Assembly: GCF_017592395.1 (NCBI RefSeq)
Contig: NZ_JAGFOU010000016.1
Coordinates: 19,949 to 83,948, forward strand
Direction: 5' to 3'
From: Actinomyces bowdenii
GTDB taxonomy: Bacteria > Actinomycetota > Actinomycetes > Actinomycetales > Actinomycetaceae
Length of the DNA stretch: 64,000 nt
Shown here: positions 1,543 through 16,145 of the stretch, one piece after another
Layout: every line of letters begins with the position of its first letter
Position numbering within the stretch: position 1 is the stretch's first letter
The notes under the pieces: model-generated
The model's database searches: none
Told to the model about the DNA's origin: nothing
Seen by the model: the letters and a program-made list of their open reading frames with translations, nothing else
Program-made: the position numbers and the translations under genes

Positions 1543-2262
1543 TCAGAGACCGGGACTGCGGGGCGGGTGGTGGCCGGTCGCGGGGGACGGGGCCGGGAGA
1601 GCGGGCCTGCCCGAGGCATAGCCGTGCTTGAAGGCCCACACCACGAGCTCCAGGCGCGAGCTCGTGCCGGTCTTGCTCAGCAGCACCGAGACATGCGTCT
1701 TGACCGTGGCCTCGGCGATGGACAGGCATGAGGCGATCCGACGGTTGGAGGCGCCCTCGCACAGCAGCTGCAGGACATCATGCTCCCTGTCGGACAGGGA
1801 CACGCTGCCATCGGCGCTGTGCACCGAGGCCAGCGCGTAGTCGATGAGCCGCGCCGTCGGCGTGGGGGCCACGACCTTGGCCCCCGCGTGGACCGTGCGC
1901 ACCGCCGAGAGGATCTCCTGGGCGGGGGTGCTCTTGAGCAGGAAGCCGCTGGCCCCCGCGCCCAGGCCGTGCAGGAGGCTGTCGTCGGTCTCCACGGTGG
2001 TCAGCAGGATGACGCGCGTGCCCGGGGAGGCCCGCAGCGCCTCCCGGGTGATCTCCACCCCGCCCATGCCCTCCATGTGCACCGCGGCGATGAGCACATC
2101 GACCTGGTGGGACTGGAGGAAGCCGAGCAGCTCGTGCGCCGAGCGCGTGGCGGTCAGGACCCGTATGCCGGAATCCGGGGAGAAGTAGGACTGCAGGCAG
2201 GCCAAGGCCATGGCGTCGTCGTCGATGAGGGCGACCCCGATCGGGGGAGGAAGGGAACCCAT
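1543..2262 (-). CDS. Orphan NarL/LuxR response regulator with a degenerate receiver
   Basis: Transcription regulator of 239 residues with an N-terminal receiver (about 8-125) and a C-terminal LuxR-type helix-turn-helix (about 155-215, LSDREHDVLQLLCEGASNRR and onward). The acidic pocket (LIDDD), the switch Thr (VILLTTVE) and the conserved Lys (GFLLKS) are present. The phosphoacceptor Asp is replaced by Ala: the strand reads DVLIAAVHMEGMGG where an LMDVRMPGMDG-type sequence is expected. The start at 2262 has a strong AAGGAG ribosome-binding site. No histidine kinase is nearby. It is divergent from the RiPP operon and shares an intergenic region holding a 22-base palindrome, so it is probably the pathway regulator, acting independently of phosphorylation. 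Confidence 0.85.
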   Translation of the reverse strand: MGSLPPPIGVALIDDDAMALACLQSYFSPDSGIRVLTATRSAHELLGFLQSHQVDVLIAAVHMEGMGGVEITREALRASPGTRVILLTTVETDDSLLHGLGAGASGFLLKSTPAQEILSAVRTVHAGAKVVAPTPTARLIDYALASVHSADGSVSLSDREHDVLQLLCEGASNRRIASCLSIAEATVKTHVSVLLSKTGTSSRLELVVWAFKHGYASGRPALPAPSPATGHHPPRSPGL

Positions 2263-2295
2263 GAGTCTCCTTAACTTGTCGTCACGGGCCGCGGT

Positions 2296-2317
2296 CGGCC
2301 AGTCGCGCGACTGGCCG
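2296..2317. promoter_or_regulatory. Perfect 22-bp palindrome in the RiPP cluster control region
   Basis: A perfect inverted repeat centred on GTCGCGCGAC lies 34 bases upstream of the response-regulator start and 250 bases upstream of the YcaO gene. The segment from about 2390 to 2560 is AT-richer than the flanking genes, as expected for a promoter. The palindrome is a candidate operator for the divergent LuxR-type regulator. No second copy was noticed elsewhere in the cluster. Confidence 0.5.
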
Positions 2318-2566
2318 GGGAACACCGCCCCGAGCCTCGGCGGGAATGAGCGCCTGCAGGTCCCGCAGATACTGGGGCGGCCGCGGAGCCGTGTTAAAGA
2401 ACGTTACAACAAAAGACTGAGGCGGGTCCCACCAACATTGCATCAGCCATAGACACACGGCCGATGCGGGCGCATGACCAGCCGGGACATGATCTGCCTC
2501 GACGGGGTATCACTGGGTTGGGAACCACATTCTTCCGGGAAAGTTGCGGCTTCAAGAGGAGGGACC

Positions 2567-3919
2567 GTGTACCGATCCGCGCTCACCGAGGACCCGCCCC
2601 CCTCCCTGGCCGGCGCCGACCGCCTGGAGTCCCCCTTCGGCCTGGTCTCGCGCACCGCTGAGCTGCCCCCGGCCGCCGGCGAGCCCGCCTTCTCCATCTG
2701 GACCGGGGCGCTGGGGGACCCCTCCGCGGTCCTGCGCTCCCAGCGCACCTGGGCCCACAGCCCGGAGTCGGGGAACTTCGACGGCGCCGGAGGGGCCATC
2801 GACGCCGAGCGGGCCCGCCGCATCGCCATCGTGGAGTCCCTGGAGCGCTACTCCAGCTGCGCCTGGAGCGAGGAGGAGCTCATCTGGGACACCCCCGCCG
2901 GCCTGGGCCCCGACGCCATCGCCCCCGACCAGTGGCCCGCCTGCTCTCAGGCCGAGTTAGCCGATCCCCACTGCGGGCTCATCGCCCCCGATCCCAGGAT
3001 CCCGCTGCGCTGGGTGCGCGGATGGTCCCTCACCCGCGGCCGGGAGGTCCTCATCCCCGCCATCCTGGTCTACCTCAACTTCCCCGCCCTCAGCCCCTCC
3101 GAGCGCTTCACCAACCCCATCTCCACCGGCACCGCCGCCCACTCCGACCTGCGCGAAGCCGTCCTGGGCGGCCTGCTGGAGGTCATCGAGCGCGACGCCA
3201 TCGCCCTGACCTGGCTCCAGCGCCTGCGGCTGCCCAGCGTCGTGGTCGATCCCGCCCTCCTGGATCCCCTGACCGCCGAGTACCACCGCGTGGGCACCTC
3301 CACCGAGCTCGAGCTCCACCTGCGCGACGCCACCACCGACTACGGCGCGCCCATCCTCTACGCCGTCCAGACCTCCCGCACCGACCCCGAGCTGGCCCAG
3401 GTCGTGGCCGCCACCTGCGACCTGGACCCCCACCGGGCCCTGGCCAAGATCCACCGCGAGCTCGCCTCCCTGCGCATCGCCCTGCGCAGCCACGCCCGCA
3501 GCCCGCGCGCCCAGGACCTCAAGGGCAAGGACCTCACCGTCGTGGGCGGGGCGCTGGCCAGCGCCGACCCCTCCCAGCGCGGGATCTTCGACTTCCTCCT
3601 GGAGGGACCCCGGCCCCTGCGCGCCCTGGGCGAGGTCGGCCGCCTGGAGGGCGGCCCCCGGGCCGACCCGCTCGCGCGGGTGGTGGCCGGCCTGGAGCGC
3701 GCGGGCGCCGAGGCCCTCGTGGTGGACATCACCACCGACGAGGCCCGGCAGGTCGGCATGCACGTCATCAAGGCCCTCATCCCGCAGGCCATGCCGCTGT
3801 CCTTCAGCCACCACGCCAGGTACCTGGCCACGCCTCGCCTCTACCAGGCCCCGCGCGCCATGGGACTGGAGGTCCACGACGAGGCCGATATCAACCCGGT
3901 CCGGCAGCCCTTCGCCTGA
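2567..3919 (+). CDS. YcaO-domain azoline cyclodehydratase of the RiPP cluster
   Basis: ATP-dependent enzyme of 450 residues that phosphorylates the backbone amide and cyclises Cys/Ser/Thr of a precursor peptide to thiazoline/oxazoline. YcaO nucleotide/Mg-binding signatures are visible: ESLERY near residue 90, and REAVLGGLLEVIERDA near 197-210 with the ExxxxxxExxER spacing. The C-terminus ends NPVRQPFA, a degenerate form of the PxPxP tail of azole-forming YcaO proteins. The GTG at 2567 is chosen because AGGAGG precedes it by four bases; an in-frame ATG at 2474 would add 31 residues of AT-richer, non-coding-looking sequence. It is the first gene of a tightly packed operon with its ThiF-like partner 19 bases downstream. 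Confidence 0.93.
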   Translation: MYRSALTEDPPPSLAGADRLESPFGLVSRTAELPPAAGEPAFSIWTGALGDPSAVLRSQRTWAHSPESGNFDGAGGAIDAERARRIAIVESLERYSSCAWSEEELIWDTPAGLGPDAIAPDQWPACSQAELADPHCGLIAPDPRIPLRWVRGWSLTRGREVLIPAILVYLNFPALSPSERFTNPISTGTAAHSDLREAVLGGLLEVIERDAIALTWLQRLRLPSVVVDPALLDPLTAEYHRVGTSTELELHLRDATTDYGAPILYAVQTSRTDPELAQVVAATCDLDPHRALAKIHRELASLRIALRSHARSPRAQDLKGKDLTVVGGALASADPSQRGIFDFLLEGPRPLRALGEVGRLEGGPRADPLARVVAGLERAGAEALVVDITTDEARQVGMHVIKALIPQAMPLSFSHHARYLATPRLYQAPRAMGLEVHDEADINPVRQPFA

Positions 3920-3938
3920 CCACGACCCAGGAGCACCC

Positions 3939-4619
3939 ATGGCACCCACGACCACCGCACCCCCGCCGATCACGGCCTACCTGCCCCAGGGGGGCTTCGG
4001 CCATGCCGTCGTCGGGCGCCTGGCCCGGCCCCAGGACGTGGTCCTGCCCGTCGACAAGGGCCTGGTCAGCGCCGTCGTGCCCTACGCCGACCGCCTGGTC
4101 CTGGTCGCGGACCCCGACCGCACCGGCCTGCGCGAGGACCTCGACGCCCTGTCCTTCACCCGCGGACTGCCCTCCCTGGGGCTGACGCTGCTTCCCACAG
4201 AGCTGCGCTGCGGCCCCCTGGTCATCCCCGGCCGCACCGCCTGCTACGGCTGCTATGAGCGGCGCCGCCGCCAGCACGGCTACCGGCCCCTGCCCGAGGG
4301 ACTGGGCCCCCTGCCGCAGGGATACGCCCACCACCACGTGGTCCTGGGCGCGGGCCTGGTCTCCATGGCCCTGGACCTGCTGGAGCGCCAGGCCCGGCCC
4401 GCCGACGGCGCTCCCCCCGAGCCCGCCGACGACCCCGGCCGGGGGCTCGGCGGGCAGGTGTGGGCACTGGACCTGGTCTCCGGCTCGACCTCCTGCGCCT
4501 CCACGGTCGCCGTGGACCGCTGCCCCACCTGCTCGGCGCGCTACGCCCACCGGCGCGACGGCCTGCCCGCACTCGCGGGCCTGCTGCCCCGACGCCGGTC
4601 CCGGCAGGCGGTGGTCTGA
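3939..4619 (+). CDS. ThiF/E1-like partner protein with zinc tetrathiolate site
   Basis: Protein of 226 residues resembling the ocin-ThiF-like (C-protein) partners of azole-forming YcaO enzymes. Two CxxC pairs, Cys102/Cys105 in CYGCYERRRRQHG and Cys195/Cys198 in VDRCPTCSARYA, form the structural zinc site typical of the family. It lacks an obvious N-terminal winged-helix leader-binding domain (RRE) and the ATP-binding residues of true E1 enzymes. The next gene carries an RRE and a second ThiF-like region, so the partner function appears divided between two proteins that may pair up. The stop codon directly abuts the ATG of the next gene, which implies translational coupling. Confidence 0.78.
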   Translation: MAPTTTAPPPITAYLPQGGFGHAVVGRLARPQDVVLPVDKGLVSAVVPYADRLVLVADPDRTGLREDLDALSFTRGLPSLGLTLLPTELRCGPLVIPGRTACYGCYERRRRQHGYRPLPEGLGPLPQGYAHHHVVLGAGLVSMALDLLERQARPADGAPPEPADDPGRGLGGQVWALDLVSGSTSCASTVAVDRCPTCSARYAHRRDGLPALAGLLPRRRSRQAVV

Positions 4620-6545
4620 ATGGCCGCATCCACGATGAGCGCGGGCGAGGTCGGTCGGGCCGCCCGCCACGACCTGCAGTTCCGCATCCCCCGCAAGCCC
4701 GTGGTGCGCCTCGGGCTGCGCCCCCGCTCCCAGGAGGGGACCTGGGTGATCGACGGCGCCCGCAAGAGCCAGGTCCTGGCAGGCGCCTTCGCCCGCGAGC
4801 ACATGGGGGACCTGCTGCGGGCCTGCGACGGCTCGCGCACCCTGGAGCAGATCGGCCAGGACACCGGGATCGGGGAGCAGGCGGCATTCGAGGCCGTCAG
4901 CCTCCTGTGGACCGGGGGCATCGTCGAGGAGGGCGACACCGAGGCGCTCACCGGCCCGCCCCCGGCGCCCGAGCTGGCCTGCCTGCTCTCGCGCCTGGGC
5001 GACTCCACGGGGGTCAACGACTCCTGGCAGGACGCCGCCCGCCGTCTGGCCGCCGCCCGCGTGGCCATCGTGGGCGATGAGGATCTGGCCGGCCGCCTCG
5101 CCGAGGCCCTGGAGCCCACGCTGCCGGTGCGCACCGGCCGGCCGGGCCCCGGGGACACCCTGGTGGTCCTCGTCGAGACCGCCGGCTGGAGTGCTGAGCA
5201 GCGCGGGGGCCGGGAGGGCGGCGGCGCTGGCGGTGGTGCCGGCGCGCACGGGGCCGGCCGCGCCGCGGGTGAGGACGAGGGCTCGGCCGGCGCGGTGGCC
5301 CGGCACTGCTGGGAGCGGGGCATCCCCCTGCTGCGCGTGCGCGCCGAGCAGGAGGCCGTCACCGTCGGCCCCTACGTGGACCCCGCCTTCTCACCCTGCC
5401 TGGAGTGCGCCACCGCCGCGGAGCCGGGCCCCGGCCCGGAGCCGGGGCCCGCCCGGCAGGACCTGGCCGTGGGCATGGCCGCCCGGGCGGTGGCCGCGCT
5501 GATCGCCCGGGCCACCATCACCCACCTGCCCGGCGATGTGCGCCGCACCGACCTGGAGACCCTGTCCACCACGGAGCGGCCCGTGGTCACCCGCCCGGGC
5601 TGCCCCGTGTGCTCCATCAGCGGCGCGCCTCCCGCGGACCCGCAGGAGGGCCGGCGCCCCGACCCGCCCGATCCGGCGCCCGGCCCCGCCCCCGTGGGCG
5701 CCCGCTACGAGCAGTCCGTGGCCATCCCCCCGGCGGCCTTCGTGGACTCCAAGGGCCACCAGCAGCATTACAAGCCCTCCAACGTCCGCCTCCAGCACGA
5801 GTTCCGCGACTGGCCCACCTGCCCGCGCACGCCGCTGCCCCCCGCCGGCCTCAGTGCCCTGGACCGGCCCTGGCCCCCCGCCGATGATGACGGAGCGCGG
5901 GCCGGGAGCAGCCAGGCCGCCCCGGAGGGCCGGGAGCCTCAGGGCGCCCGGGCCGCCGGGGCGCCGTCGCTGGAGGAGCTGGCCACGATCCTGGCCCTGT
6001 CCGTCGGCGTGCGCGAGCCCCTGGCCCCCGGCGCCCGGCCGTCGGCCCAGGAGGCCAGGGCCAAGCTGCGCCGGTGGACCGCCGCCGGGGGCAACATCGG
6101 CTCAGTCACCGCCTACCTCCTGGTGCCCGGCCGGTCCGGGGCCGAGCCCGCCCTCCGGGGCCCCTCCGGCGCCGTCGCCCCGGCCGCCCCGGCCGCCCCC
6201 GCCGGCCCGCCGGCCCCCGGCACCTACGCCTACGTCGAGCGCGACCACGTCCTGGCCCGGCTGGGGCCGCCGGTGGAGCTGCCCGACGACGTCGGCGTGC
6301 GCCTGGTCCTGACCGGCAACGTGGACAAGGTGGCCAGGAAGTACCTGGCCTTCGCCCTGCGGATCGCCATCCAGGACTGCGGCTGCTCCTTCGAGACGGC
6401 CCGCATCGTGGCCCGCGCCCTGGGCGTGCCCCTGCGCGCTCGGGCCCGCTGGCAGGAGCAGGAGATCGCCGCCGCCCTGGGAGCCGACCCCGCCCGCGAG
6501 CCCATCTGCGCCGTCGTCGACCTGGGAGAAGGCCATGCGCTCTGA
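4620..6545 (+). CDS. RRE/ThiF-like leader-binding protein fused to a SagB-like azoline oxidase domain
   Basis: Multidomain protein of 641 residues. Residues about 20-105 look like a winged-helix precursor-recognition element (LRPRSQEGTWVIDGARKS through WTGGIVEEGD). Residues about 140-335 are ThiF-like, with zinc-type pairs Cys260/Cys263 (CLEC) and Cys328/Cys331 (CPVC). Residues about 365-640 resemble an FMN-dependent SagB-like nitroreductase: LEELATILALSVGVRE, then AGGNIGSVTAYLLVP, then RKYLAFALRIAIQDCGCS. Alanine/proline-rich linkers join the parts. The likely role is to bind the leader, present the core to YcaO, and help oxidise azolines. Its 3' end overlaps the next gene by 11 bases. The fusion is unusual, because leader binder and dehydrogenase are normally separate proteins. 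Confidence 0.75.
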   Translation: MAASTMSAGEVGRAARHDLQFRIPRKPVVRLGLRPRSQEGTWVIDGARKSQVLAGAFAREHMGDLLRACDGSRTLEQIGQDTGIGEQAAFEAVSLLWTGGIVEEGDTEALTGPPPAPELACLLSRLGDSTGVNDSWQDAARRLAAARVAIVGDEDLAGRLAEALEPTLPVRTGRPGPGDTLVVLVETAGWSAEQRGGREGGGAGGGAGAHGAGRAAGEDEGSAGAVARHCWERGIPLLRVRAEQEAVTVGPYVDPAFSPCLECATAAEPGPGPEPGPARQDLAVGMAARAVAALIARATITHLPGDVRRTDLETLSTTERPVVTRPGCPVCSISGAPPADPQEGRRPDPPDPAPGPAPVGARYEQSVAIPPAAFVDSKGHQQHYKPSNVRLQHEFRDWPTCPRTPLPPAGLSALDRPWPPADDDGARAGSSQAAPEGREPQGARAAGAPSLEELATILALSVGVREPLAPGARPSAQEARAKLRRWTAAGGNIGSVTAYLLVPGRSGAEPALRGPSGAVAPAAPAAPAGPPAPGTYAYVERDHVLARLGPPVELPDDVGVRLVLTGNVDKVARKYLAFALRIAIQDCGCSFETARIVARALGVPLRARARWQEQEIAAALGADPAREPICAVVDLGEGHAL

Positions 6546-7260
6546 CTACCAGACCCTGCGCGAGATCATCACCGGCTTCTCCCATCCCCCCGCCCAGGAT
6601 CCCGCCGCCGCGCGCCGGGCCCGGCCGCGCCGCGAGCTGCGCTGCCTGGTCCCAGACGCCCTGGAGGCCCAGGACCTGGACGGGGCGGGGCGGTCCAGCC
6701 CCTACCTCCACACCCTGCGGGGCACCCTCGAGCGCCGCTCCTCCTCCACCGCCTACAGCCCCGAGCCCCTGGAGGCGGGCCTGCTGCTGGCCACCGTGCG
6801 CGAGGCCCTCATGGAGGAGGAGGGCGCCTGGCAGGGGCGGGGCGCGGGCGGCCCGGAGGTCTTCGTCCTGCTCCTGCGGCCCCGAGGTGCGGAGCCGGGC
6901 ATCTACCGGGTGCGGCGCGAGGGGGCAGATCTGGTGGCGGACCTGCCCGCCCCCGAGCAGGTCGAGGGGATGACCGTGCAGAAGGAGTTCGCCCAGGCCG
7001 GGGCGATCGTCTCCGCGGCAGCCGACCTGGAGGCCGCCGAGGCCTGGGGCGGGGCCCACGGCTACCGCCATGCCATGGGGCGCTGCGCCTCCCTCATCTA
7101 CTCGGTGCACCTGCGGGCCGTGGCCCGCGGCCTGGTGGGCACGGTCTTCGCCGGATTCGCCTCCTCCGAGGTGCGCCACCTGCTCGACTCCGACGGCGTG
7201 AGCCGCCACCAGATGTTCGCCGTCACGGTGGCCCACCCCGCCCAGGAGCGGTCCCCGTGA
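6535..7260 (+). CDS. SagB-like FMN-dependent azoline dehydrogenase
   Basis: Nitroreductase-fold protein of 241 residues, predicted to oxidise thiazolines/oxazolines to aromatic azoles using FMN. It has the start-of-domain signature LERRSSSTAYSPEPLE near residue 65. The later core reads HGYRHAMGRCASLIYSVHLR, then ARGLVGTVFAGFASSEVRHL and a hydrophobic final strand (HQMFAVTVAH), which matches the second half of SagB/ThcOx-type enzymes. It overlaps the preceding fusion gene by 11 bases, so the two SagB-like domains are co-translated and may form a heterodimer. One of them may be catalytically inactive. The assignment rests on pattern and context. Confidence 0.75.
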   Translation: MRSDYQTLREIITGFSHPPAQDPAAARRARPRRELRCLVPDALEAQDLDGAGRSSPYLHTLRGTLERRSSSTAYSPEPLEAGLLLATVREALMEEEGAWQGRGAGGPEVFVLLLRPRGAEPGIYRVRREGADLVADLPAPEQVEGMTVQKEFAQAGAIVSAAADLEAAEAWGGAHGYRHAMGRCASLIYSVHLRAVARGLVGTVFAGFASSEVRHLLDSDGVSRHQMFAVTVAHPAQERSP

Positions 7261-7367
7261 GCGCCGCCCCGCCGTCCTCGACGGCGCCCCGGCGCCCGGG
7301 CCGCCCACCCAGGACCGCCCCGCTCCGCGGGGCGAGGGGCCCGGCCCTGCCAGGCCGGACCCCTCCA

Positions 7368-7420
7368 CGGGGCCCGCGGGCCCCGCTCCCAACCAGCGAC
7401 GCATGCCAGGAAAGGAGGTG
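7368..7420 (+). promoter_or_regulatory. Leader region of the precursor gene: palindrome and near-ideal ribosome-binding site
   Basis: A perfect 18-base palindrome (7368-7385, CGGGGCCCG arm) lies 43 bases upstream of the precursor start. The sequence AAAGGAGGTG at 7411-7420 complements almost the whole 16S anti-Shine-Dalgarno region. Several smaller GC hairpins lie between 7263 and 7360. The very strong site suggests the precursor is made in excess over its enzymes. Confidence 0.65.
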
Positions 7421-7428
7421 AACAGCAT

Positions 7429-7629
7429 ATGAGCAAGACGATCGATCTGACACTGGCCGACAGCGACTTCGGTGTCGAGGAGCTGCCCGAGGGCAACTCC
7501 CTGGGCTGCATGTTCTGCGCGGCCTGCGCCTCGTGCCCGTCCTGCGCGGCCTCGGCCTCATGCGAGGCCTGCGCCGCCTCGGCCTCGTGCGAGGCCTGCG
7601 CCGCCTGCGCGTCGACAACCTCCTGTTGA
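7429..7629 (+). CDS. Cys-rich azole/dehydro-peptide RiPP precursor with a strict period-3 core
   Basis: Precursor peptide of 66 residues. The leader (about 1-26) is acidic and ends FGVEELPEGNSLG, like thiopeptide/azole-peptide leaders. From residue 27 every third residue is heterocyclisable: Cys27, 30, 33, 36, 39, Ser42, Cys45, 48, Ser51, Cys54, 57, 60, Thr63, Cys66, giving 11 Cys, 2 Ser and 1 Thr with no exception. Ser35, 38, 44, 53, 62 and 65 each immediately precede such a position and could become dehydroalanine. A nine-residue unit (for example CEACAASAS) repeats three times in 36-62, seen in DNA as a 27-base tandem repeat. Cleavage near Gly26 is inferred. It sits between the azole-forming and the protease/dehydratase genes. 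Confidence 0.92.
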   Translation: MSKTIDLTLADSDFGVEELPEGNSLGCMFCAACASCPSCAASASCEACAASASCEACAACASTTSC

Positions 7630-7655
7630 TCTCGACCCGCTGACGACGCCCCGGT

Positions 7656-7695
7656 GGTGGGCGGGGCCCAGAGCCCATCCGGGCGCCCGCCCACC
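7656..7695 (+). terminator. Hairpin after the precursor gene (partial terminator or mRNA stabiliser)
   Basis: A ten-base perfect stem (GGTGGGCGGG at 7656-7665, CCCGCCCACC at 7686-7695) starts 26 bases after the precursor stop and has no U-run. In RiPP operons such structures often raise precursor mRNA relative to the downstream enzyme genes; that role is inferred here. The rest of 7630-7824 shows no gene. Confidence 0.5.
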
Positions 7696-7824
7696 GCCAC
7701 TCCACTCACCCCAGTCAATCCACCGCCACTCCACCACCGGCCCGCACCGCGCTGGGGCGCCTGCGCCCCGCAGCGGGCCACCGCCCCGACCGCAACCGCC
7801 ATTCCGAGGGAGGCGCAAGCCCGC

Positions 7825-8988
7825 ATGACCGCGACCGGTGAGATCCCGCGCCTGCGCCGGGGAGTGTCCCTGATCGTCGGCATGGACGACCAGCCGATGC
7901 TCTTCGACTCCGACTCGGGCAAGTACCACCGCCTCGGGGCGGCTGCCGCGGTCATCGTCGGCCAGTTCGACGGTCGGCGCTCACTGCCCGCGATCATCGA
8001 CCAGCTGCCCCAGGACATCGACGAGGCCGGCGCCCAGCGCATCACCCGCATGGTCGAGGTCCTGCGCACCAACCGGCTCCTGGAGGGCGCCGGGGCACCC
8101 GGCCGGGACGGGGACTACACCAGGAAGCCGGTCCAGGGGCGCCACGTGGCACCACCGCGCCGCGGCAAGCACGCCCACGCCCAGCCCCCGCGCTGGAACG
8201 GCGGCTGGCTGCTGCCCCGGTTCATCATCATGCGCTCCTACCGCCGCGTGGTGGCGCCCGTGGTCAGGCTGCTGCACCACCTGCCGGTGCGGGCGTTGAG
8301 CATCCTGTTCCTGCTGGCCTCCGCCACCGGCTTCGCCGCCGGGGCGATGAGCCTGTGGCTGCTGTCCGGCGGGCCGCGCCCCGGCATGGGGGTCGTCCTG
8401 GCCGCCGTGCTCATCCAGCTGGTGAGCATCCTGGGCCACGAGTCCTGGCACGCCATCGTCGCCGGCTACCTGGGCACTCCCGTGCGCGGCCTGGGGGTGG
8501 CCATCATGTTCTGGGTCGTGCCCATCGCCTTCGTGGACCGCACCGATTCCTACCAGGTGCGCTCCCGCTGGGGCCGGGCGATGCTCGCGCTGGCCGGCAT
8601 CTGCTCCGACGGCGTCGTGTGCGGCCTGGAGGCGGCGGTCGCCGCGGCCTCCACGGGCACGGTCAGGCAGGTGGCCCTGACCCTGTGCGCCTTCCAGCTG
8701 ACCATGCTCCTCACCAACCTCCACCCCCTGACCCAGTCCGACGGCGTGGCGGCGGTGGAGGCGCTGACCGGCTCGGTCAACCTGCGGGGCCGGTCCATGC
8801 TCGTCCTCCGCAGCACCCTGCGGCGCGAGCCCCTGCCCCCCGCCCTGGCCGTCAGGGGCCCGGCGGTGCGCTGGGGGTACTTCACCTACGGCCTGCTGTG
8901 CGTGATGCTGGGGATCGCCTTCACCTGCCTGAGCGTCCTGTGGCTGCTGCTCATCCTGTTCAATGCCACGAAAGGCCTGCTCTCATGA
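7825..8988 (+). CDS. Membrane M50-type metalloprotease with N-terminal PqqD-like domain, probable leader peptidase
   Basis: Protein of 387 residues. Residues about 15-80 (MLFDSDSGKYHRLGAAAAVIV and after) look like a PqqD/RRE-type peptide-binding domain. A membrane domain with several hydrophobic helices follows. It carries the zinc motif HESWH in LGHESWHAIVAGYLG and a later HPLTQSDG segment resembling the distal DG motif of site-2-type proteases. An intramembrane zinc protease with its own leader-recognition domain next to a precursor gene suggests cleavage of the modified leader, perhaps coupled to export, since no dedicated ABC transporter is in the cluster. Its stop overlaps the ATG of the next gene by four bases. 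The protease family is clear; the substrate is inferred. Confidence 0.78.
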   Translation: MTATGEIPRLRRGVSLIVGMDDQPMLFDSDSGKYHRLGAAAAVIVGQFDGRRSLPAIIDQLPQDIDEAGAQRITRMVEVLRTNRLLEGAGAPGRDGDYTRKPVQGRHVAPPRRGKHAHAQPPRWNGGWLLPRFIIMRSYRRVVAPVVRLLHHLPVRALSILFLLASATGFAAGAMSLWLLSGGPRPGMGVVLAAVLIQLVSILGHESWHAIVAGYLGTPVRGLGVAIMFWVVPIAFVDRTDSYQVRSRWGRAMLALAGICSDGVVCGLEAAVAAASTGTVRQVALTLCAFQLTMLLTNLHPLTQSDGVAAVEALTGSVNLRGRSMLVLRSTLRREPLPPALAVRGPAVRWGYFTYGLLCVMLGIAFTCLSVLWLLLILFNATKGLLS

Positions 8989-11645
8989 CCCTCCCCGCAC
9001 CCCCTGATCCCGGCCACCGCACCGCGCCGCCGTCGCGGGGCGAGGACGGGCCGGGCCGCGAGCCCCCGGCGCGCCCTCGCATCCCAGCCGGTCCCGCAGC
9101 CCCGGAGGCGCCCGCGCACCCGGAGGCGGCGGCGCACAGCGGGCCGGTCATCGCCTACCCCACCCTCGTGCGCCTGGGAGGCCTGCCCGTGCGCGCAGTG
9201 CCCGAGCCCCAGCCGGGCCTCATCGCGGCCCTGGACCACCTGCGCCGCCTCGAGGAGGACCTGGAGCGCACCGGCCAGCAGATGCTCGACCCCCTCTACG
9301 AGGCCATCCCCACCCTGGCCACATCCCAGCGCCGGGCCGTCCTGCGCGCCAAGAGGAGGGTCTACCAGGGCCGGCGGACCGCCGTGAGCGCCCAGGTGCG
9401 GGCGGAGCTGCCCCCGGGCATCGCCGCCCTGCTGCGCGGGTGGGACGACCTGGTCCACGAGCGGCAGGAGGCCCGCGCCCTGCTGGAGGCGCAGGTGGAG
9501 GCCGACCTCGCCCACGCCCGCGCCCTGCTGGCCCGCGGCCTGGAGGAGCCCGGCTACCTCAGCTCCCTGGCGGTGGCCGCCCCGGCACTGGTGGCGGTGC
9601 TGAGCGCGCGCGGCCCCCGGCTCAACGACCCGCGCATGCTGCGCAGCCTCTACACCCTGGCCACGCGCACGGCCCTGAAGACCAGTCCCTTCTCCGGCCT
9701 GACCACGGTGGCCGAGGCCGGCCGTCCCGCCCGTGGCCGCAGCCTGTGCACGACGGCGGTCCACCTGGCCCATGGCATCCTGGCCGCCACCGCGCGCCAG
9801 GTCGACCCGGCCGGGCTCCTGCGCCTGGAGAGCGTCCCGGTGACGCGGGCCCCCCTCCCCCGGGGCTCGGAGGGGCCGGAGGGCCCCGGCGCGCAAGGCC
9901 GCCGGGGCCGGCGGGAGGCGCCGCCGGGAGCGGGTCGGGCCCAGGACCTGCCGCTGGCGGCCGTCGCCGAGTACGACTACGCCGATGGGATGCACTTCCG
10001 CCGGGAGGAGATCCAGCCCGCCCGGTGGCTCCTGGCCTGCCATGCGGCCCTGACGGCCGGGCGGCCCGACCCCGCCCCGGTGGGCGTGGCCGAGGCCATG
10101 CGGCTCCTGGGGGGCCGGGACCCCGGGCTGCGGCTGAGCCGGCTGCTCGCCTCGGGCGCCGTGCGGCCCCGGATCCCCTGGCAGCGCGGCCAGGAGCCCT
10201 TCACCGCCCTGGCGGGCACCCTCTCCCAGGCCCAGCGCCGCGCCTGGGGCCAGGACCTGGAATGGCTCGCAGGGCTGGGGCGCGCCGTGCAGGACGCCCC
10301 CGGCCCCCGGCGCGCCGAGCTGCTCACCAGGGCAGGGCGCCTGGCCCAGCGCATCTTCCCCGACGGCGAGCTGGGCACCAGGCCCTCGGGCCTGCTCTAC
10401 GAGGACCGCGAGTCCGAGGTGGCCTGGGATGAGCCCGCCGACGACGAGCGCTTCGCCCAGGACGCGCAGACCCTGGCCGGGCTGGCCGACCCCTGGGTGA
10501 CCCGCTCGCACATCTACGACCTCATGGTGGAGCGCTTCACCGCCCGCTACGGCAGCGGGGGAGTGTGCCGGGACCCCCTGGCCTTCCTCATGGCCCTGGC
10601 CCACGCCCCCGACGGGGATGCCGGGATGCTGCGCGCCTCCACCTGGGACTACACCGCTGGGCCCGATCCCGAGCGCGCCGCCATGCCCGGGGGCCTGAGC
10701 GCCTGCCCCCGCCACCTGGGCGCCTACCTCCAGCCCGTGACCACCGCATCGGCCCCGCCCACCCGCGAGTTGACCGTGGTCAACGCCTTGACCAGCGGAA
10801 ACGGCGCCCTCCAGGCCCGCTTCCACCGCCTGCTGGGCCAGGACTACCGCCAGCGCCTGGCCCAGCGCATCCGCGAGCACTGGGGGCTGGAGCGCGTCCT
10901 GGAGCTGCAGGCCGCCACCGAGTGCCACACCGGCCAGGCCGTCTCCTGCGGAGTGCTGCCCCCGGTGGGCCTGCCCGGCGAGCCTCCCAGCCCGCAGGCC
11001 GTGGACCTGGCCCGCCTGCGCCTGGTCCACGACCCGGGCACGAGCACCCTGTTCCTGGCCGACGGGCAGGGGCCGGTGGGCCTGGCCTACCTGGGGCTCA
11101 TCCCCCAGCACCGCCTGGGCGGCTACCTGGCCTGGCTGGCCCTGCTGGGGGACCCGTGGGCCCGCCTGGCCCCCTTCTCCGACCACTGGCTCAGCCGCAG
11201 CCGTGAGCGCACCGGGCCGCTGCCCGATGCCGTCCTGCACGAGCCGCGCGCCGTCCACGGGCGCCTGGTCACCCGCCGCGAGTCCTGGACCCTGCCCGCG
11301 GCCATGGTCACCTCCCTGCTGGAGCGCGACCCGGCCGCCGGCCTGGTGCGGGTCGGGGGACTGCGCGAGCAGTGGGGGCTGCCCCGGGAGGTCTACGTCC
11401 ACCAGCACCTGCCCTCCCGGGGGGCGACCTTCGATGAGCACAAGCCCCGCTACGTGGACCTGTGCTCACCGGTGTCCCTGCTGGCGCTGCGCGGGTGGAT
11501 CGACCCGCGGGCCGAGCACCTGAGCCTGGTGGAGGCGCTGCCCGCCAGGGCCGAGCACCGGGGGCGCACGCCGGGCGGGGAGGCCACCGTGGTGGAGTAC
11601 CTCATCGGTATCCAGTGGCCCAAGGCCCCGGGAGGCGGCGCATGA
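8985..11645 (+). CDS. LanB-type dehydratase, glutamylation subunit (split)
   Basis: Protein of 886 residues resembling the N-terminal part of class I lantibiotic dehydratases, which use glutamyl-tRNA to glutamylate Ser/Thr before elimination. The family block MLRSLYTLATRTALKTSPFSGLTTV, with the conserved KTSPF, is near residue 220. Later LanB-like segments include EDRESEVAWDEP and an ASPVSLLAL-type C-terminus (VDLCSPVSLLALRG). The first 55 residues are a Pro/Ala-rich extension. The length suits the TbtB/GodF class of split enzymes. It overlaps the M50 gene upstream and the elimination-domain gene downstream by four bases each, so all three are translationally coupled. Confidence 0.88.
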   Translation: MTLPAPPDPGHRTAPPSRGEDGPGREPPARPRIPAGPAAPEAPAHPEAAAHSGPVIAYPTLVRLGGLPVRAVPEPQPGLIAALDHLRRLEEDLERTGQQMLDPLYEAIPTLATSQRRAVLRAKRRVYQGRRTAVSAQVRAELPPGIAALLRGWDDLVHERQEARALLEAQVEADLAHARALLARGLEEPGYLSSLAVAAPALVAVLSARGPRLNDPRMLRSLYTLATRTALKTSPFSGLTTVAEAGRPARGRSLCTTAVHLAHGILAATARQVDPAGLLRLESVPVTRAPLPRGSEGPEGPGAQGRRGRREAPPGAGRAQDLPLAAVAEYDYADGMHFRREEIQPARWLLACHAALTAGRPDPAPVGVAEAMRLLGGRDPGLRLSRLLASGAVRPRIPWQRGQEPFTALAGTLSQAQRRAWGQDLEWLAGLGRAVQDAPGPRRAELLTRAGRLAQRIFPDGELGTRPSGLLYEDRESEVAWDEPADDERFAQDAQTLAGLADPWVTRSHIYDLMVERFTARYGSGGVCRDPLAFLMALAHAPDGDAGMLRASTWDYTAGPDPERAAMPGGLSACPRHLGAYLQPVTTASAPPTRELTVVNALTSGNGALQARFHRLLGQDYRQRLAQRIREHWGLERVLELQAATECHTGQAVSCGVLPPVGLPGEPPSPQAVDLARLRLVHDPGTSTLFLADGQGPVGLAYLGLIPQHRLGGYLAWLALLGDPWARLAPFSDHWLSRSRERTGPLPDAVLHEPRAVHGRLVTRRESWTLPAAMVTSLLERDPAAGLVRVGGLREQWGLPREVYVHQHLPSRGATFDEHKPRYVDLCSPVSLLALRGWIDPRAEHLSLVEALPARAEHRGRTPGGEATVVEYLIGIQWPKAPGGGA

Positions 11646-12559
11646 GCGCCGGCGGGGCGCCCGGCGCCGTCCCGGGGCGGGGCGGCACGGGTGCGGGCAC
11701 GGGTGGGCAGGCGCCGCCGCAGGAGCGGCAGGGCGCCGGGGCCGACTGGCTGTTCGTGCGCCTGTACTGCGGCGGGGGCGATGACACCGATGCCCTGCTT
11801 CCCCGGGTCGCCCAATGGCTGGAGGAGGTCCGCGCCCACTGGCCGATCCTCTCGGCGCACTTCCTGCGCTTCATCGATCTGCGCGGGCACCACGTGCGGC
11901 TGCGGGTCAAGGCCGGGCCGGATGACCTCGATGAGATCGCCGCCCGCCTCGGGGCCCTGGAGGACGCCTCACGGGCCGCACCGGTGCGCACGGTCGAGCG
12001 CCTGGTGCCCGATCCGCTCACCCGCGCCGTCGATGGCCGGGCGGGGGCGAGCCTGGCGGTCTACGGCCCGGAGTACGGCAAGTACGGGCCCGGGGCGGGG
12101 GTGGAGGCGGCCGAGCGGCACTTCGAGGCCTCCTCCCGGTGGTGCCTGACCCACCGGGTCTGGCAGGTCCCGCGCCCGGTGCCCCGGGTGGCACTGGCGG
12201 CCCGCCTCCTGGCCCGGGCGGCCGGCCAGCTCCCGCTGGACCCGGCTGATCTCCTGGCCCTCCACCTGCGCACCTGGGGCCGGCGCCTGCCCGAGGAGCT
12301 GCGCGATGGGACCGCGCTGGACCCCCTGGTCCGCCAGGTCCTGGGCTATGACGGCCGGGACCTGGCGGCGTGGAGCACCTGGGCGGGCTCGGTGGACGAG
12401 CCCGCCCAGGACGCCGCGATCGCGATCAGCCGGATCGGGGCGGGGCCGCAGGGGCGCCGGGCCATCGACCTGCTGCACATGGACATCAACCGCCTGGGCC
12501 TCAACGCCGCCGAGGAGTGCGTGGCCGGGGTGTGCGCCCGCTACCTGCTCCAGGGCTAG
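11642..12559 (+). CDS. LanB C-terminal-type (SpaB_C / thiopeptide-type) elimination protein
   Basis: Protein of 305 residues matching the stand-alone SpaB_C-like domain found in thiopeptide and goadsporin pathways. Visible blocks are WLFVRLYCGGGDDTDALLP, FLRFIDLRGHHVRLRVKA, the YGPEYGKYGPG segment and the terminal HMDINRLGLNAAEE block. With the preceding glutamylation subunit it should eliminate glutamate to leave dehydroalanine or dehydrobutyrine. Related proteins instead catalyse the [4+2] cycloaddition that forms the thiopeptide pyridine. Only one copy is present, and dehydration needs one, so a linear product is the simpler reading. The first 35 residues are a Gly-rich extension. It is the last gene of the operon. 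Confidence 0.83.
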   Translation: MSAGGAPGAVPGRGGTGAGTGGQAPPQERQGAGADWLFVRLYCGGGDDTDALLPRVAQWLEEVRAHWPILSAHFLRFIDLRGHHVRLRVKAGPDDLDEIAARLGALEDASRAAPVRTVERLVPDPLTRAVDGRAGASLAVYGPEYGKYGPGAGVEAAERHFEASSRWCLTHRVWQVPRPVPRVALAARLLARAAGQLPLDPADLLALHLRTWGRRLPEELRDGTALDPLVRQVLGYDGRDLAAWSTWAGSVDEPAQDAAIAISRIGAGPQGRRAIDLLHMDINRLGLNAAEECVAGVCARYLLQG

Positions 12560-12676: not shown

Positions 12677-13549
12677 CTACTTCACCGCCCCGGAGGTGAT
12701 GCCCGAGATGATGCTGCGCTGGAAGATCGCGAACAGCACGATCAGCGGCAGGCTCATGAGCAGCACATAGCTGAAGATGAGGTGCCAGTTGTTCAGGTGC
12801 ACTCCCGCGCTGGCCACGGCGAACAGGTTGAGGGGGAGGGTGTCCAGGCGCCCGCCCACGATGAACAGGGCGTAGAAGACGTCGTTCCACACGTACAGGC
12901 TGATGAGGATCGTGGCGGTGGCCAGCACCGGCCGCAGCAGCGGCAGGATGATCATGAGGAAGACCCGCACCGGGCCCGCCCCGTCGATCCGGGCCGCCTC
13001 CTCCAGGGACTCCGGGACGGTGCGCACGAAGCCGGTGACGAAGAAGATCACCGTGGACAGGTACATGCCGGTGTAGGTGCACACCATGCCCACCGCGCTT
13101 CCCGCCAGGCCCAGCTGGCGCAGCAGCAGCACCAGGGTCACCACCGCGGGCGGCAGGATGATCCCCGAGATGCCGATGGCGTAGACCACGGCGGCAGCCC
13201 TGCTGGAGCGCCGGGCCAGGATCCAGGCGGCCATCGACCCCAGGACCAGGACGGCCAGCACCGAGGGGATCAGCAGCAGCAGGCTCCCCAGGAAGGCCGG
13301 GCCGATCTCGCTGCGCACGGCGACCTCGGAGAGGTTGTCCCACAGCTGCCAGCGCGAGGGCAGGGACAGGTCCGGGGACAGCGCCTCGGCCTGGGACTTG
13401 CCGGCGGTGACCAGGACGGTCCACAGGGGCACTCCCACCAGGGAGGCGGCCAGCAGCACGACCACCACCGGCTGGACCACCGTGGGCAGGAGGCGGCGCG
13501 CCGTCGCCGGGCGGGAGGACTGCTGGGCGGGTGAGTGGGGGCGGGTCAT
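12677..13549 (-). CDS. Carbohydrate ABC transporter permease, MalG-type
   Basis: Inner-membrane permease of 290 residues with about six helices, one half of the translocation pore of a CUT1-type sugar importer. The ATPase-contact EAA loop is visible as EEAARIDGAGPVRVFLMIILP near residue 195. The start at 13549 lies a few bases inside the end of the upstream permease gene, giving a four-base overlap. The order of binding protein, MalF-like and MalG-like permease on one strand is standard. No ATPase gene is present, so the importer probably shares a general MsiK-like ATPase, as is common in actinobacteria. The sugar is unknown; the nearby GH16 gene suggests beta-glucan or galactan oligosaccharides. 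Confidence 0.9.
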   Translation of the reverse strand: MTRPHSPAQQSSRPATARRLLPTVVQPVVVVLLAASLVGVPLWTVLVTAGKSQAEALSPDLSLPSRWQLWDNLSEVAVRSEIGPAFLGSLLLLIPSVLAVLVLGSMAAWILARRSSRAAAVVYAIGISGIILPPAVVTLVLLLRQLGLAGSAVGMVCTYTGMYLSTVIFFVTGFVRTVPESLEEAARIDGAGPVRVFLMIILPLLRPVLATATILISLYVWNDVFYALFIVGGRLDTLPLNLFAVASAGVHLNNWHLIFSYVLLMSLPLIVLFAIFQRSIISGITSGAVK

Positions 13550-14445
13550 GCGACGCTCCTTTCTCGACGGCGCAGCATCCCGATGACGGGGAAGGCCAGG
13601 ACGACCACGGCCGCGAAGAGCACCAGGCTCATCGTGGTGGCCTGGGCGTACAGGCCCTGCCCGAAGGTGCGGAAGATGAAGAGGTTGAGCAGCTCGGTGG
13701 AGCCGCCGGGGCCGCCCCCGGTGGTGGCCTGGACGATGTCGAAGGAGTTCATCGAGCCCAGTAGGGCGGTGGCCACGTTGAAGGTGACCGCGGGGGCGAT
13801 GAGGGGGACCCGGATGTGCCGCAGGGTCTGCCACGGGCTGGCGCCGTCGAGCCGGGCCGCCTCCAGCACCTGGGCGTCGATGGTCTTCAGGCCCGCCAGG
13901 TAGACCAGCATCGACATGCCCATCCACTTCCAGGAGTGGATGAGGATGCACACCAGGAGCGTCCACGTCGTCGAGCCCAGCCAGGCGATGCGCACCGGGG
14001 AGCCGATGAGCAGGCCCAGGGCCTGGTTGAGCCCGCCCTCGGGCCTGAGCAGGGCCTGGAAGATGTAGCCCACGGCCAGGGCGGACATGATGACGGGGAT
14101 GAAGAACACGACCCGGGCGATCTTGTTCACGCGAGTGTCGCGCTCCAGCAGCAGGGCCAGCCCCAGGCCGAAGAGGTTCTGGAAGACGGCCACGCCCGCC
14201 GCGTAGAGGAGGGTGATGACCAGGGCCCGGCGCAGGGAGCCGGAGGCCGACAGCTCGGAGAAGTTCTCCAGGCCCACCGGGTTGATCGCGGTCTTGAAGC
14301 TCGACCAGTCCGTGAAGGCGTAGACGAAGTTGTAGACCGTGGGGGTCAGGAAGAACACCGCGAGCACGGCGAAGGCCGGTACCACGAATCCCCACGGGTG
14401 CGCAGAGCCCGCGCGGTGCCGCGGTGCTCGTCCTGAGATGGCCAT
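13546..14445 (-). CDS. Carbohydrate ABC transporter permease, MalF-type
   Basis: Inner-membrane permease of 299 residues with six predicted helices and the EAA loop LEAARLDGASPWQTLRHIRVPL near residue 200. It starts with a short basic cytoplasmic tail (MAISGRAPRHRAG) and then the first helix, typical of short MalF-like permeases of CUT1 systems. It follows the solute-binding protein gene by five bases and overlaps the second permease by four, so the three form one operon transcribed leftward from near 16040. It is the obligate partner of the MalG-type permease. Confidence 0.9.
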   Translation of the reverse strand: MAISGRAPRHRAGSAHPWGFVVPAFAVLAVFFLTPTVYNFVYAFTDWSSFKTAINPVGLENFSELSASGSLRRALVITLLYAAGVAVFQNLFGLGLALLLERDTRVNKIARVVFFIPVIMSALAVGYIFQALLRPEGGLNQALGLLIGSPVRIAWLGSTTWTLLVCILIHSWKWMGMSMLVYLAGLKTIDAQVLEAARLDGASPWQTLRHIRVPLIAPAVTFNVATALLGSMNSFDIVQATTGGGPGGSTELLNLFIFRTFGQGLYAQATTMSLVLFAAVVVLAFPVIGMLRRRERSVA

Positions 14446-14450
14446 CGGGA

Positions 14451-15809
14451 TCAGAACCCCTTCGCGCCCATGGCCTTGGCGAGCTGGGCGAACTGGGCCT
14501 GGGTCTCCTGGCCCACCTGGGCGGCGGTCTTGGTGCCGGCGATCATGTCGCCCAGGTTCTTGGCCAGGTCGGGGTTGGCGATCGCCAGGGACTGCATGGA
14601 GCCCACCGAGGAGTCCAGGGCCTTGTTGGACTCCACCAGCGCTGCGGGCACCGTGTCAGGGGTCTGGACGTCCTTGATGATCGAGACGGTGTTCTGGTCC
14701 TTGATGAAGTCGGCGTAGCCCTCGGAGAGCCAGTAGGTGAGGAACTGGCGGGCGGCCTCCTCGCGCTTGGCATCCCCGCTCTTGAAGGCCACGACGGCGT
14801 TGGTCTGGTCGGGGATGGAGGTGGCCAGGGTGCCTGATGCGGAGATCGGGAAGAAGCCGATGGTCGAGTCCAGGGTGGCGGTGTCGGCCTGGGCCGCCAT
14901 GTTGCCCAGGAGGCTGGTGACCTGGATGGCCATGGCGGCCTCCCCCGACAGGACGGCCTTGGCCTGCTGGTCGAAGGTCCCGGTCTTGATGTCGGAGTTG
15001 AACAGGCCCTCCTCGATCATGGAGTTGTAGGTGTCGATGGCGCCCTGGATGTCCTTGCCCGTGAACTGGTCCTCATTGGCGTTGACCCGATCCCACAGGC
15101 CGTCCTTGGCGGCCTCGGCCAGCTGGACCTGGACGGCCCACTGCGAGGCCCACCACTCCCCGCCCATCTCGTAGAAGGGGGTCACGCCCTTGGACTTCAG
15201 GTCCCGGGCCAGGGTCAGCAGCTGCTCGAAGCTCGTGGGCACCGAGGCGCCGTGGGTGGCGAAGACCTGCTTGTTGTACCACACGCCCATGATGGAGGGC
15301 GCGGAGATGAAGGCGGCGTACCGGGTGCCGTCGAGCGTTCCGCCGGCCGCCAGGACGCTGTCCTGGGTGGCCTTCTCCCAGGGGGCGCCGTCGAGGGGCT
15401 GGAGCCGCTCCTTGGCGCCCAGGGCCAGCAGCTGGGAGGCGGTGGGCTGCCACATGGCCAGGTCGGGGACGTCCCCGGTGGCGACCTTGGTCTGCACGCC
15501 CTGCTCGTAGGGGTCGGGAATGGTCACGATGCTGACCGTGGCCCCGGTGGCCTCCTCGAAGGCGGCGGCGACCTTCTCCGGGATGGCGGCCGAGGACTGC
15601 GCCGCCCACAGGGTCAGCTCGACGCCGTCGAGCTTGTCGGTGGCGGCCGGCCAGGAGGCGGGCGCGTCCTGGCCGGCCCCGGAGCCCTCGCCGGGGTCGG
15701 AGCATGCGGCCAGGGACAGTGCGGCGATCCCGCCGATGGCCAGGGATAGGGAGGTGCGCCTGCTGATAGGCCTGCTCATCAGGGGGGTCAGGGTGCCCAT
15801 GGGCCTCAT
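14451..15809 (-). CDS. Extracellular sugar-binding lipoprotein of a CUT1 ABC importer
   Basis: Family 1 solute-binding protein of 452 residues. The N-terminus has an SRRTSLSLAIGG stretch followed by the lipobox LAAC, so it is a lipoprotein, possibly Tat-exported. The mature part has the expected signatures VELTLWAAQSS near the start, AAFEEATGATVSIVTIPDPYEQGVQTKVATGDVPDL as the first lobe (given here only as a landmark at about residues 85-120), and a GEAAMAIQ segment near residue 280. The start at 15809 is preferred because GGAG precedes it by five bases; a longer frame reaches 16073 but lacks a signal-like N-terminus. It should capture an oligosaccharide and deliver it to the two permeases downstream. 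Confidence 0.9.
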   Translation of the reverse strand: MRPMGTLTPLMSRPISRRTSLSLAIGGIAALSLAACSDPGEGSGAGQDAPASWPAATDKLDGVELTLWAAQSSAAIPEKVAAAFEEATGATVSIVTIPDPYEQGVQTKVATGDVPDLAMWQPTASQLLALGAKERLQPLDGAPWEKATQDSVLAAGGTLDGTRYAAFISAPSIMGVWYNKQVFATHGASVPTSFEQLLTLARDLKSKGVTPFYEMGGEWWASQWAVQVQLAEAAKDGLWDRVNANEDQFTGKDIQGAIDTYNSMIEEGLFNSDIKTGTFDQQAKAVLSGEAAMAIQVTSLLGNMAAQADTATLDSTIGFFPISASGTLATSIPDQTNAVVAFKSGDAKREEAARQFLTYWLSEGYADFIKDQNTVSIIKDVQTPDTVPAALVESNKALDSSVGSMQSLAIANPDLAKNLGDMIAGTKTAAQVGQETQAQFAQLAKAMGAKGF

Positions 15810-16047
15810 TTCTTCTCCAATCATGCGGCGTCGTTGACGCAGGTGGCGCTCGGGCCGGAAGGGCACGAGGCCAGGGGTGTGCAGGTGCGGGCACGGGCCC
15901 TCCGGCATGGCGGGCTCCCGGCGGGGGCGCCGGGGCGGGCTGGCGGAGTCCGTGACGACCTCCACGGCGAGGACGCGCCTGCTCGGCGGTCTCGGTGAAT
16001 GACGAGGGACACGGTAGGGAGCGGGGGAGGGGGGAGTCCACATGACA

Positions 16048-16063
16048 TGAAACACCTGTTTCA
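16048..16063. promoter_or_regulatory. LacI-type operator candidate
   Basis: Inverted repeat TGAAAC-N4-GTTTCA in the region between the divergent sugar-importer operon and the GH16 gene. Its form suits a LacI-family repressor, and such a gene lies at 17498. It could switch both transcription units. The remaining part of 15810-16145 shows no gene. Confidence 0.6.
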
Positions 16064-16145
16064 GTTTGGCCAAGCCTCCCCGTATTTATTGGTCGACAGC
16101 GGTCTACGATCGGCTCACCCGCTGATACGCGAAGGAGCGTGAACG

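What the first reader, a model, noticed from the sequence alone, without database searches (positions are those of the whole stretch)
7429..7629. RiPP precursor with a heterocyclisable residue at every third position for 40 residues
From Cys27 to Cys66 all 14 positions at spacing three are Cys, Ser or Thr (11 C, 2 S, 1 T), with no break. Six Ser (35, 38, 44, 53, 62, 65) sit immediately before such a position, and the others are mostly Ala. If fully processed this gives a rod-like polythiazole in which azole, Xaa and Ala/dehydroalanine alternate. Cys-Xaa-Xaa repeats are known in heterocycloanthracin-type Bacillus precursors. Here the same idea is paired with a goadsporin/thiopeptide-like LanB dehydratase, which would be an unusual combination.
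Basis: partly seen in the sequence, partly recalled or inferred. Interest (0 to 1): 0.93.

Follow-up and report, generated by a model that had tools for sequence, protein, structure and literature searches.

The report
Extended goadsporin-like polyazole peptide of Actinomyces
Many Actinomyces species carry a conserved gene cluster whose small peptide has Cys, Ser or Thr at every third place for up to 43 residues; it is predicted to be turned into an unusually long linear azole peptide, likely an extended relative of the antibiotic goadsporin.

Summary
In detail: ORF 7429-7629 has Cys/Ser/Thr at 14 of 14 every-third positions from Cys27 to Cys66. It is not chance: 266 of 266 such positions in 20 different orthologous cores are C, S or T, and all 329 pairwise differences there stay within C/S/T. 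The pairing with a goadsporin-type LanB is no surprise, however. Published work shows that goadsporin itself is built of X1-(S/T/C)-X2 triplets, with dehydroalanine at a Ser just before an azole; spongiicolazolicins, phazolicin, nostatin A and carnazolamide share much of this tripeptide plan. The window's cluster (YcaO, E1-like partner, fused partner/oxidase, second oxidase, precursor, PqqD-M50 protease, split LanB) has a sister type in Actinomyces, Streptomyces and Nesterenkonia. The sister type has 4-5 tandem precursors of 5+4 triplets with a four-residue step between blocks, as in goadsporin, plus an ABC exporter. The window's type has one precursor with one unbroken ladder (22-43 residues, varying mostly by 9 or 3), an invariant terminal Cys (predicted unmodified) and no such exporter beside it. 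So: a new variant of a known kind. Product, activity and target are untested.

The parts
7429..7506 (+). precursor leader peptide, residues 1-26 (MSKTIDLTLADSDFGVEELPEGNSLG); cleavage site unknown
   Evidence: NCBIfam NF033482 'thiocillin family RiPP' over residues 6-52, 40.4 bits against cut-off 25
7507..7626 (+). core peptide, Cys27-Cys66: 14 register positions all C/S/T, last one C-terminal
2474..3919 (+). YcaO cyclodehydratase (SagD family); C-terminus NPVRQPFA
   Evidence: TIGR03604 385 bits, PF02624 211 bits; 74-90% identical in 20 type-A orthologues; C-termini
3939..4619 (+). small E1/ThiF-like leader-binding partner
   Evidence: TIGR03882 36.5 bits, just under cut-off 36.9; conserved in synteny
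4620..6545 (+). fusion of an E1-like partner domain with a SagB-type FMN oxidase domain; invariant K574-Y575
   Evidence: TIGR03882 41.8 bits (over cut-off) and SagB TIGR03605 39.6 bits (under cut-off 78.4); invariant columns; profile matches SagB-type CyaGox/ThcOx chains E 2e-5; predicted fold matches TruD, other heterocyclases, MccB and ThcOx (model mean pLDDT 66)
6535..7260 (+). second nitroreductase/SagB-like protein, RRSS motif
   Evidence: PF00881 17.5 bits, under cut-off 23.5; profile matches nitroreductase 3eo7 E 9e-5
7825..8988 (+). PqqD-like domain plus M50-type metalloprotease (HESWH, NLHPLTQSDG), predicted leader protease
   Evidence: daptide_HExxH NF041824 86 bits (cut-off 300), PqqD and M50 under cut-off; motifs
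8985..11645 (+). LanB N-part, GodF-like Glu-tRNA-dependent glutamylation protein (predicted)
   Evidence: phmmer to 9jhq E 8.6e-32; profile 4.1e-76
11642..12559 (+). LanB C-part, predicted glutamate-elimination protein
   Evidence: PF14028 99 bits, TIGR03891 72.9 bits; no match to pyridine-synthase model NF045556; profile matches MadB, MibB and NisB
1543..2325 (-). LuxR-type response regulator, divergent, conserved beside the cluster
   Evidence: PF00072, PF00196; next to YcaO in 20 of the 21 type-A loci besides the window; the other, L056, begins inside the cluster

Best explanation
The cluster at 2474-12559 likely makes a long, linear azole peptide of the goadsporin plan: the YcaO complex is predicted to turn the Cys, Ser or Thr in the middle of each X1-(C/S/T)-X2 triplet into an azoline, the SagB-like oxidases would oxidise it to an azole, and the split GodF-like LanB would then dehydrate the Ser that directly precede an azole. 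Steps: (1) the E1-like proteins would bind the leader (inferred from families). (2) Up to 13 triplets, registers 27 to 63, would become 10 thiazoles, 2 oxazoles and 1 methyloxazole (predicted). The last register, Cys66, has no following residue and is predicted to stay a free Cys, as goadsporin and carnazolamide enzymes leave C-terminal C/S/T alone; all 22 type-A cores end in Cys. (3) Ser35, 38, 44, 53 and 62 would become dehydroalanine; 35, 44, 53 and 62 are invariant in 12 of 12 unique 40-residue cores, giving one Dha per nine residues. (4) The PqqD-M50 protease would cut the leader and perhaps release the peptide, since the ABC exporter pair found in all ten sister clusters examined is absent from the 22 type-A stretches. 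The likely role is an antibacterial or signalling peptide in plaque communities (inference, weakest step).
For: Register 266 of 266 C/S/T in 20 unique cores; X1 only S/A/F/G plus one C, X2 twelve residue types. This matches the GodD/E rule of a strict X1 and a tolerant X2 (PMC5303826). Register differences among equal-length cores: 329 of 329 within C/S/T, where 26% of single-base non-synonymous changes would stay there. Terminal Cys in 22 of 22. Gene order YcaO, partner, fusion, oxidase, precursor(s), M50, LanB-N, LanB-C is shared by the window, 21 type-A and 10 type-B loci, save that L056 starts inside the cluster. LanB-N is closest to the goadsporin enzyme. Type-B cores: 309 of 315 positions C/S/T in a 5+4 triplet scheme with a four-residue step. 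GodD/E and partners make 12 triplet azoles and 4 Dha from a designed tandem in vivo. Dha only before azoles and no C-terminal heterocycle in carnazolamide.
Confidence: 0.73

Rival explanations
1. Only register Cys become thiazoles; register Ser/Thr (42, 51, 63) are dehydrated or left alone, so the ladder has gaps wherever Ser replaces Cys.
For: Register Ser share is high in some orthologues (CSSCSSCSSCCSTC), and Ser is a LanB substrate elsewhere.
Against: Ser, Thr and Cys were all heterocyclised in the goadsporin triplet motif and in carnazolamide; Cys/Ser exchange at register (280 of 329 pairwise differences) suggests equivalence.
Confidence: 0.17
2. It is a thiopeptide: two dehydroalanines are joined into a pyridine by a [4+2] enzyme, giving a macrocycle.
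For: The leader matches the thiocillin family model NF033482; LanB-C belongs to TIGR03891, and its predicted fold also fits TbtD, PbtD and other [4+2] enzymes.
Against: There is one LanB-C gene in the cluster, with no match to the pyridine-synthase model NF045556; in this genome that model rings only on another contig, far under its cut-off. Sequence profiles of LanB-C match elimination-domain proteins and no pyridine synthase. The core is about three times a usual thiopeptide core (recalled).
Confidence: 0.05
3. The Cys stay free and bind metal or form disulfides.
For: Eleven Cys, and CxxC spacing is common in metal sites (recalled).
Against: Register positions exchange Cys with Ser and Thr in orthologues, and the 22 type-A cores hold from 5 to 13 Cys; the YcaO and oxidase genes are syntenic with the precursor.
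Confidence: 0.03
4. The period is a by-product of DNA repeat slippage in 27-base and 9-base units, without chemical meaning.
For: The core DNA is repetitive and lengths vary mostly by 9 or 3 residues.
Against: Register codons vary among TGC, TGT, AGC, AGT, TCG, TCC, ACG, ACC and ACA yet never leave C/S/T, while X2 drifts through 12 residues; distant type-B cores keep the register with different sequence.
Confidence: 0.02

Closest known systems
Goadsporin (Streptomyces sp. TP-A0584)
   Same: Triplet X1-(S/T/C)-X2 azole layout, Dha at Ser just before an azole, split LanB with GodF-like glutamylation protein, linear.
   Different: 19-residue core with two blocks of three triplets; fused cyclodehydratase, acetyltransferase GodH, putative peptidase-exporter GodB. 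Here: 14 unbroken triplet registers, discrete YcaO and partners, M50 protease, no such exporter beside it.
Spongiicolazolicins A and B (Streptomyces sp. CWH03)
   Same: Linear azole peptides with a very similar tripeptide pattern; 29 and 28 residues, close to the type-B cores found here (26-31, mostly 28).
   Different: Their cluster was not seen by me (original paper not in the library), so identity with type B is inference; type A is mostly longer and unbroken.
Phazolicin, nostatin A, carnazolamide (dehydrazoles)
   Same: Phazolicin: every third residue an azole; Dha/Dhb-azole-Xaa blocks in nostatin A; Dha only before azoles in carnazolamide.
   Different: Phazolicin has no dehydrated residues; carnazolamide uses a LanM-like dehydratase and a nitrile-hydratase-type leader; nostatin A has such a leader too (abstract).
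Heterocycloanthracins
   Same: Repeated Cys-Xaa-Xaa, strain-variable length by tripeptide indels.
   Different: Gly-rich, no LanB in the passages read, TIGR03601 model not matched, precursor mostly unlinked to the enzymes.
Coryneazolisins
   Same: YcaO cluster with LanB-like dehydratase and no [4+2] enzyme, actinobacterial.
   Different: Core is a run of 10 C/S/T, an Ile, then 5-7 more, not triplets.

Membership tests
Linear azol(in)e peptides with split LanB (goadsporin plan) | TOMM-type YcaO cyclodehydratase in the cluster | tested here: met
   TIGR03604 385 bits against cut-off 219
Linear azol(in)e peptides with split LanB (goadsporin plan) | separate GodF-like glutamylation protein | tested here: met
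   9jhq best and, by profile, far above 6ec7
Linear azol(in)e peptides with split LanB (goadsporin plan) | separate glutamate-elimination protein | tested here: inconclusive
   sequence profile favours elimination-domain proteins; fold also fits [4+2] enzymes
Linear azol(in)e peptides with split LanB (goadsporin plan) | core made of X1-(S/T/C)-X2 triplets | tested here: met
   266 of 266 register positions
Linear azol(in)e peptides with split LanB (goadsporin plan) | azoles and Dha present in the mature peptide | not testable with these tools
   needs mass spectrometry
Goadsporin in the strict sense | fused cyclodehydratase and acetyltransferase in the cluster | tested here: not met
   YcaO is a discrete protein and no acetyltransferase family matches any of the nine proteins scanned
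Thiopeptide | [4+2] pyridine synthase in the cluster | tested here: not met
   NF045556 absent up to E 10 for 11645-12559 and, in this genome, matched only on contig C7; the fold alone would not exclude it
Thiopeptide | thiocillin-family precursor model NF033482 | tested here: met
   40.4 bits, cut-off 25; match over residues 6-52
Heterocycloanthracin | TIGR03601 precursor model | tested here: not met
   no match up to E 10 in NCBIfam nor in the whole genome at E 0.001, though the model rang in none of the control genomes either
Dehydrazole | DUF4135 LanM-like dehydratase next to the YcaO | tested here: not met
   no such Pfam match up to E 0.1 in the nine proteins scanned

The most novel reading that the evidence does not exclude
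Actinomyces make an uninterrupted azole ladder longer than any characterised natural product in the papers I read: up to 13 azoles in the window's peptide at strict three-residue spacing, with a dehydroalanine every ninth residue and a free terminal Cys. Its length is tuned by gain and loss of whole nine-residue units, and a PqqD-M50 membrane protease releases it in place of the exporter that the sister clusters carry.
Probability: 0.36. Interest if true: 0.72.

Novelty: new variant of a known kind. Interest (0 to 1): 0.56.

Why it matters
It gives a natural series of precursors (cores of 31 to 43 residues with 5 to 13 Cys in the 22 genomes, and of 22 to 25 among database proteins) that differ mostly by whole triplets or nine-residue units. 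That makes it directly testable how a motif-reading azole machine counts, how long a polyazole can grow and what sets dehydroalanine placement. It also points to a widespread, apparently unassigned peptide of Actinomyces species, several of them known from the human mouth (habitat recalled, apart from record titles such as 'oral taxon').

Tried and rejected
Plasmid collection (tblastn of LanB-N): no match. Weak precursor hits in G031, G036 and G023:C13 (E about 0.003-0.007) were dropped as unrelated: L057-L059 carry none of the genes searched for. Thiopeptide, metal-binding, repeat-slippage and heterocycloanthracin membership were considered and set aside for the reasons given above. The LanB-C fold searches could not separate elimination from cycloaddition. 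The fusion protein's model is only moderate (mean pLDDT 66), so its fold hits are supporting only. The type-B 5+4 scheme was fitted after looking at the cores, and the script that collected them required a CP pair, at least 12 C/S/T in the last 28 residues and no Arg, which favours the result. One precursor-like ORF of L053 (9961-10116) without a CP pair was thereby dropped from the 45. Searches also show other LanB-C and YcaO genes in this genome; they belong to another cluster.

Literature searches for an existing description of this Actinomyces peptide: (Actinomyces with thiopeptide/oral, linear azol/RiPP, YcaO/precursor, goadsporin). Nothing describing it appeared in the titles and abstract starts listed; supplements and subscription papers were not searched, so absence from print is not shown. 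PMC8549736 (gene clusters of mouth and airway bacteria, Actinomyces among them) was seen as passages only.

Full report
What was checked. The ORF at 7429-7629 encodes MSKTIDLTLADSDFGVEELPEGNSLG followed by a 40-residue core beginning at Cys27. Taking every third core residue gives CCCCCSCCSCCCTC: 14 of 14 are heterocyclisable, 11 of them Cys. Shuffling the core reached a run of 14 in 2 of 200000 trials and 11 Cys in one phase in none. In the window's six frames the next longest stride-3 run among 962 stretches is 9. The coordinates, residue numbers and counts in the finding are right.

Conservation. The precursor was sought in 199 genomes (the own genome among them); 27 matched at E 0.01 or better. 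After setting aside two weak genomes (G031, G036) without the enzymes, two with only the sister type (G005, G015) and the outside genome G141, 22 hold the window's type (type A): the window plus 21 loci, all of the same genus. The 22 precursors give 20 unique cores. Every register position is C, S or T: 266 of 266 (164 C, 79 S, 23 T). The residue before it (X1) is S 117, A 104, F 20, G 5, C 1. The residue after it (X2) takes 12 kinds. Core lengths are 31, 37, 39, 40 and 43, and 19 of 20 are one more than a multiple of three. All 22 end in Cys and hold 5 to 13 Cys. Among 28 database proteins the register runs to the end in 22, two of them very short pieces; in 6 it breaks in a C-terminal tail unlike the family. 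Core lengths of 22 and 25 appear there.

Selection on chemistry, not on identity. In pairwise comparison of equal-length cores, register positions differ more often (329 of 1353) than X1 (129 of 1255) or X2 (239 of 1255). Yet all 329 differences are C/S, C/T or S/T, whereas 26% of single-base non-synonymous changes from the register codons would stay in that set. The pairs share ancestry, so 329 is not a number of events. Ser at X1 is invariant at 35, 44, 53, 62 and 65 in 12 of 12 unique 40-residue cores, and X1 is Ala at 32, 41, 50 and 59. The core is thus a nine-residue repeat made of three triplets. Register residues swap within C/S/T, and a Ser stands before an azole site once per repeat.

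The sister type. LanB-N relatives in named genomes include five Streptomyces and one Nesterenkonia. With three Actinomyces clusters and G141 they make ten type-B loci with the same gene order and 4 or 5 tandem precursors each, 45 in all. Their 35 unique cores fit five triplets, a step of four, then four triplets: 33, 34, 35, 35, 35 and 35, 35, 34, 33 of 35 are C/S/T (309 of 315). The scheme was fitted afterwards, the collection rule favours C/S/T-rich ends, and one ORF of L053 without the CP pair was not counted. All ten carry an ABC ATPase and an ABC-2 permease right after LanB-C. Of the 22 type-A stretches (64 kb for the window, 15-20 kb for the others) none has the permease, and two (L039, L051) have a distant ATPase elsewhere. 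In 7 of the 17 type-A loci with purB in reach, purB follows within 652 bases. A YcaO tree puts all 21 type-A rows on one side of a branch (98/96), next to the Actinomyces type B. Since all outside rows are type B, type A most simply arose from type B; long branches and the arbitrary root limit this.

Link to known chemistry. In goadsporin (PMC5303826; passages and sections 8, 12 and 13 read) GodD/E heterocyclise the middle of X1-(S/T/C)-X2. They do not modify a C-terminal S/T/C, did not accept Glu, Arg, Tyr or Trp at X1, and tolerated Arg, Tyr and Trp but not Glu at X2. Dha at S4 and S14 requires azoles at 5 and 15, and a designed tandem gave 12 azoles and 4 Dha in vivo. Azoles at 2, 5, 8 and 15 are in that text; 12 and 18 follow by elimination. 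Nostatin A's paper (passages) describes tripeptide blocks of Dha/Dhb, azole and plain residue, and names phazolicin, spongiicolazolicins and goadsporin as similar with fewer dehydrated residues. A review (passages and section 8, part 1) says every third residue of phazolicin is an azole. In carnazolamide (outline, first three of seven parts and discussion read) Dha forms only before azoles and C-terminal C/S/T are left. Heterocycloanthracins (whole text of PMC2674419 read) repeat Cys-Xaa-Xaa with tripeptide indels. The TOMM survey PMC4603692 was read as passages, outline and sections 12, 15, 19 and 26. What I did not find in these papers is its extension to one unbroken ladder of up to 14-15 registers, the nine-residue length steps in such a LanB cluster, the conserved terminal Cys and the missing exporter.

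Mechanism and its weak points. The proposed order (leader binding, azoline, azole, Dha, leader removal) is inferred from these relatives. Two register Cys are followed by Glu, against the goadsporin X2 rule, and register 30 follows Phe in all 20 cores, an X1 larger than goadsporin's. The YcaO C-terminal proline motif is altered in Actinomyces (PVRQP in the window against PxPQP outside), and a review says the PxP motif is involved in catalysis. An M50 protease, EpeP, is thought both to cut and to export an epipeptide (PMC10885120 passages), which is the precedent for release without an exporter. Activity is unknown; spongiicolazolicins were reported without antibacterial activity (PMC8838263 passages).

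Verdict. Real, conserved and very likely functional; a new variant of a known kind. I lower the interest from 0.93 because the combination claimed as unusual is established, and keep it above the middle for the exact, genus-wide triplet rule and the natural length series.

Noticed in passing
L086 (contig C7 of the window's own genome, 62000-81900): A second azole/LanB cluster: two YcaO, two SagB-type oxidases, LanB-C and a large protein beside it; the pyridine-synthase model rings weakly at C7:82852-83517 (43 bits, cut-off 325). Possibly a thiopeptide cluster; no precursor found by a crude scan.
   Followed up: partly
   Followed up: partly
   Followed up: no
window 3890-3919 and homologues: The YcaO C-terminal proline motif has lost its middle Pro in the window and all 23 Actinomyces homologues of both types that were read, but not in Streptomyces, Nesterenkonia and G141.
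   Followed up: partly
window 12677-16073 (-): A sugar-type ABC transporter operon (named from the ORF translations) sits downstream of this cluster, before purB, in the window and its closest relative L032, while purB follows LanB-C within 652 bases in seven other loci.
   Followed up: no
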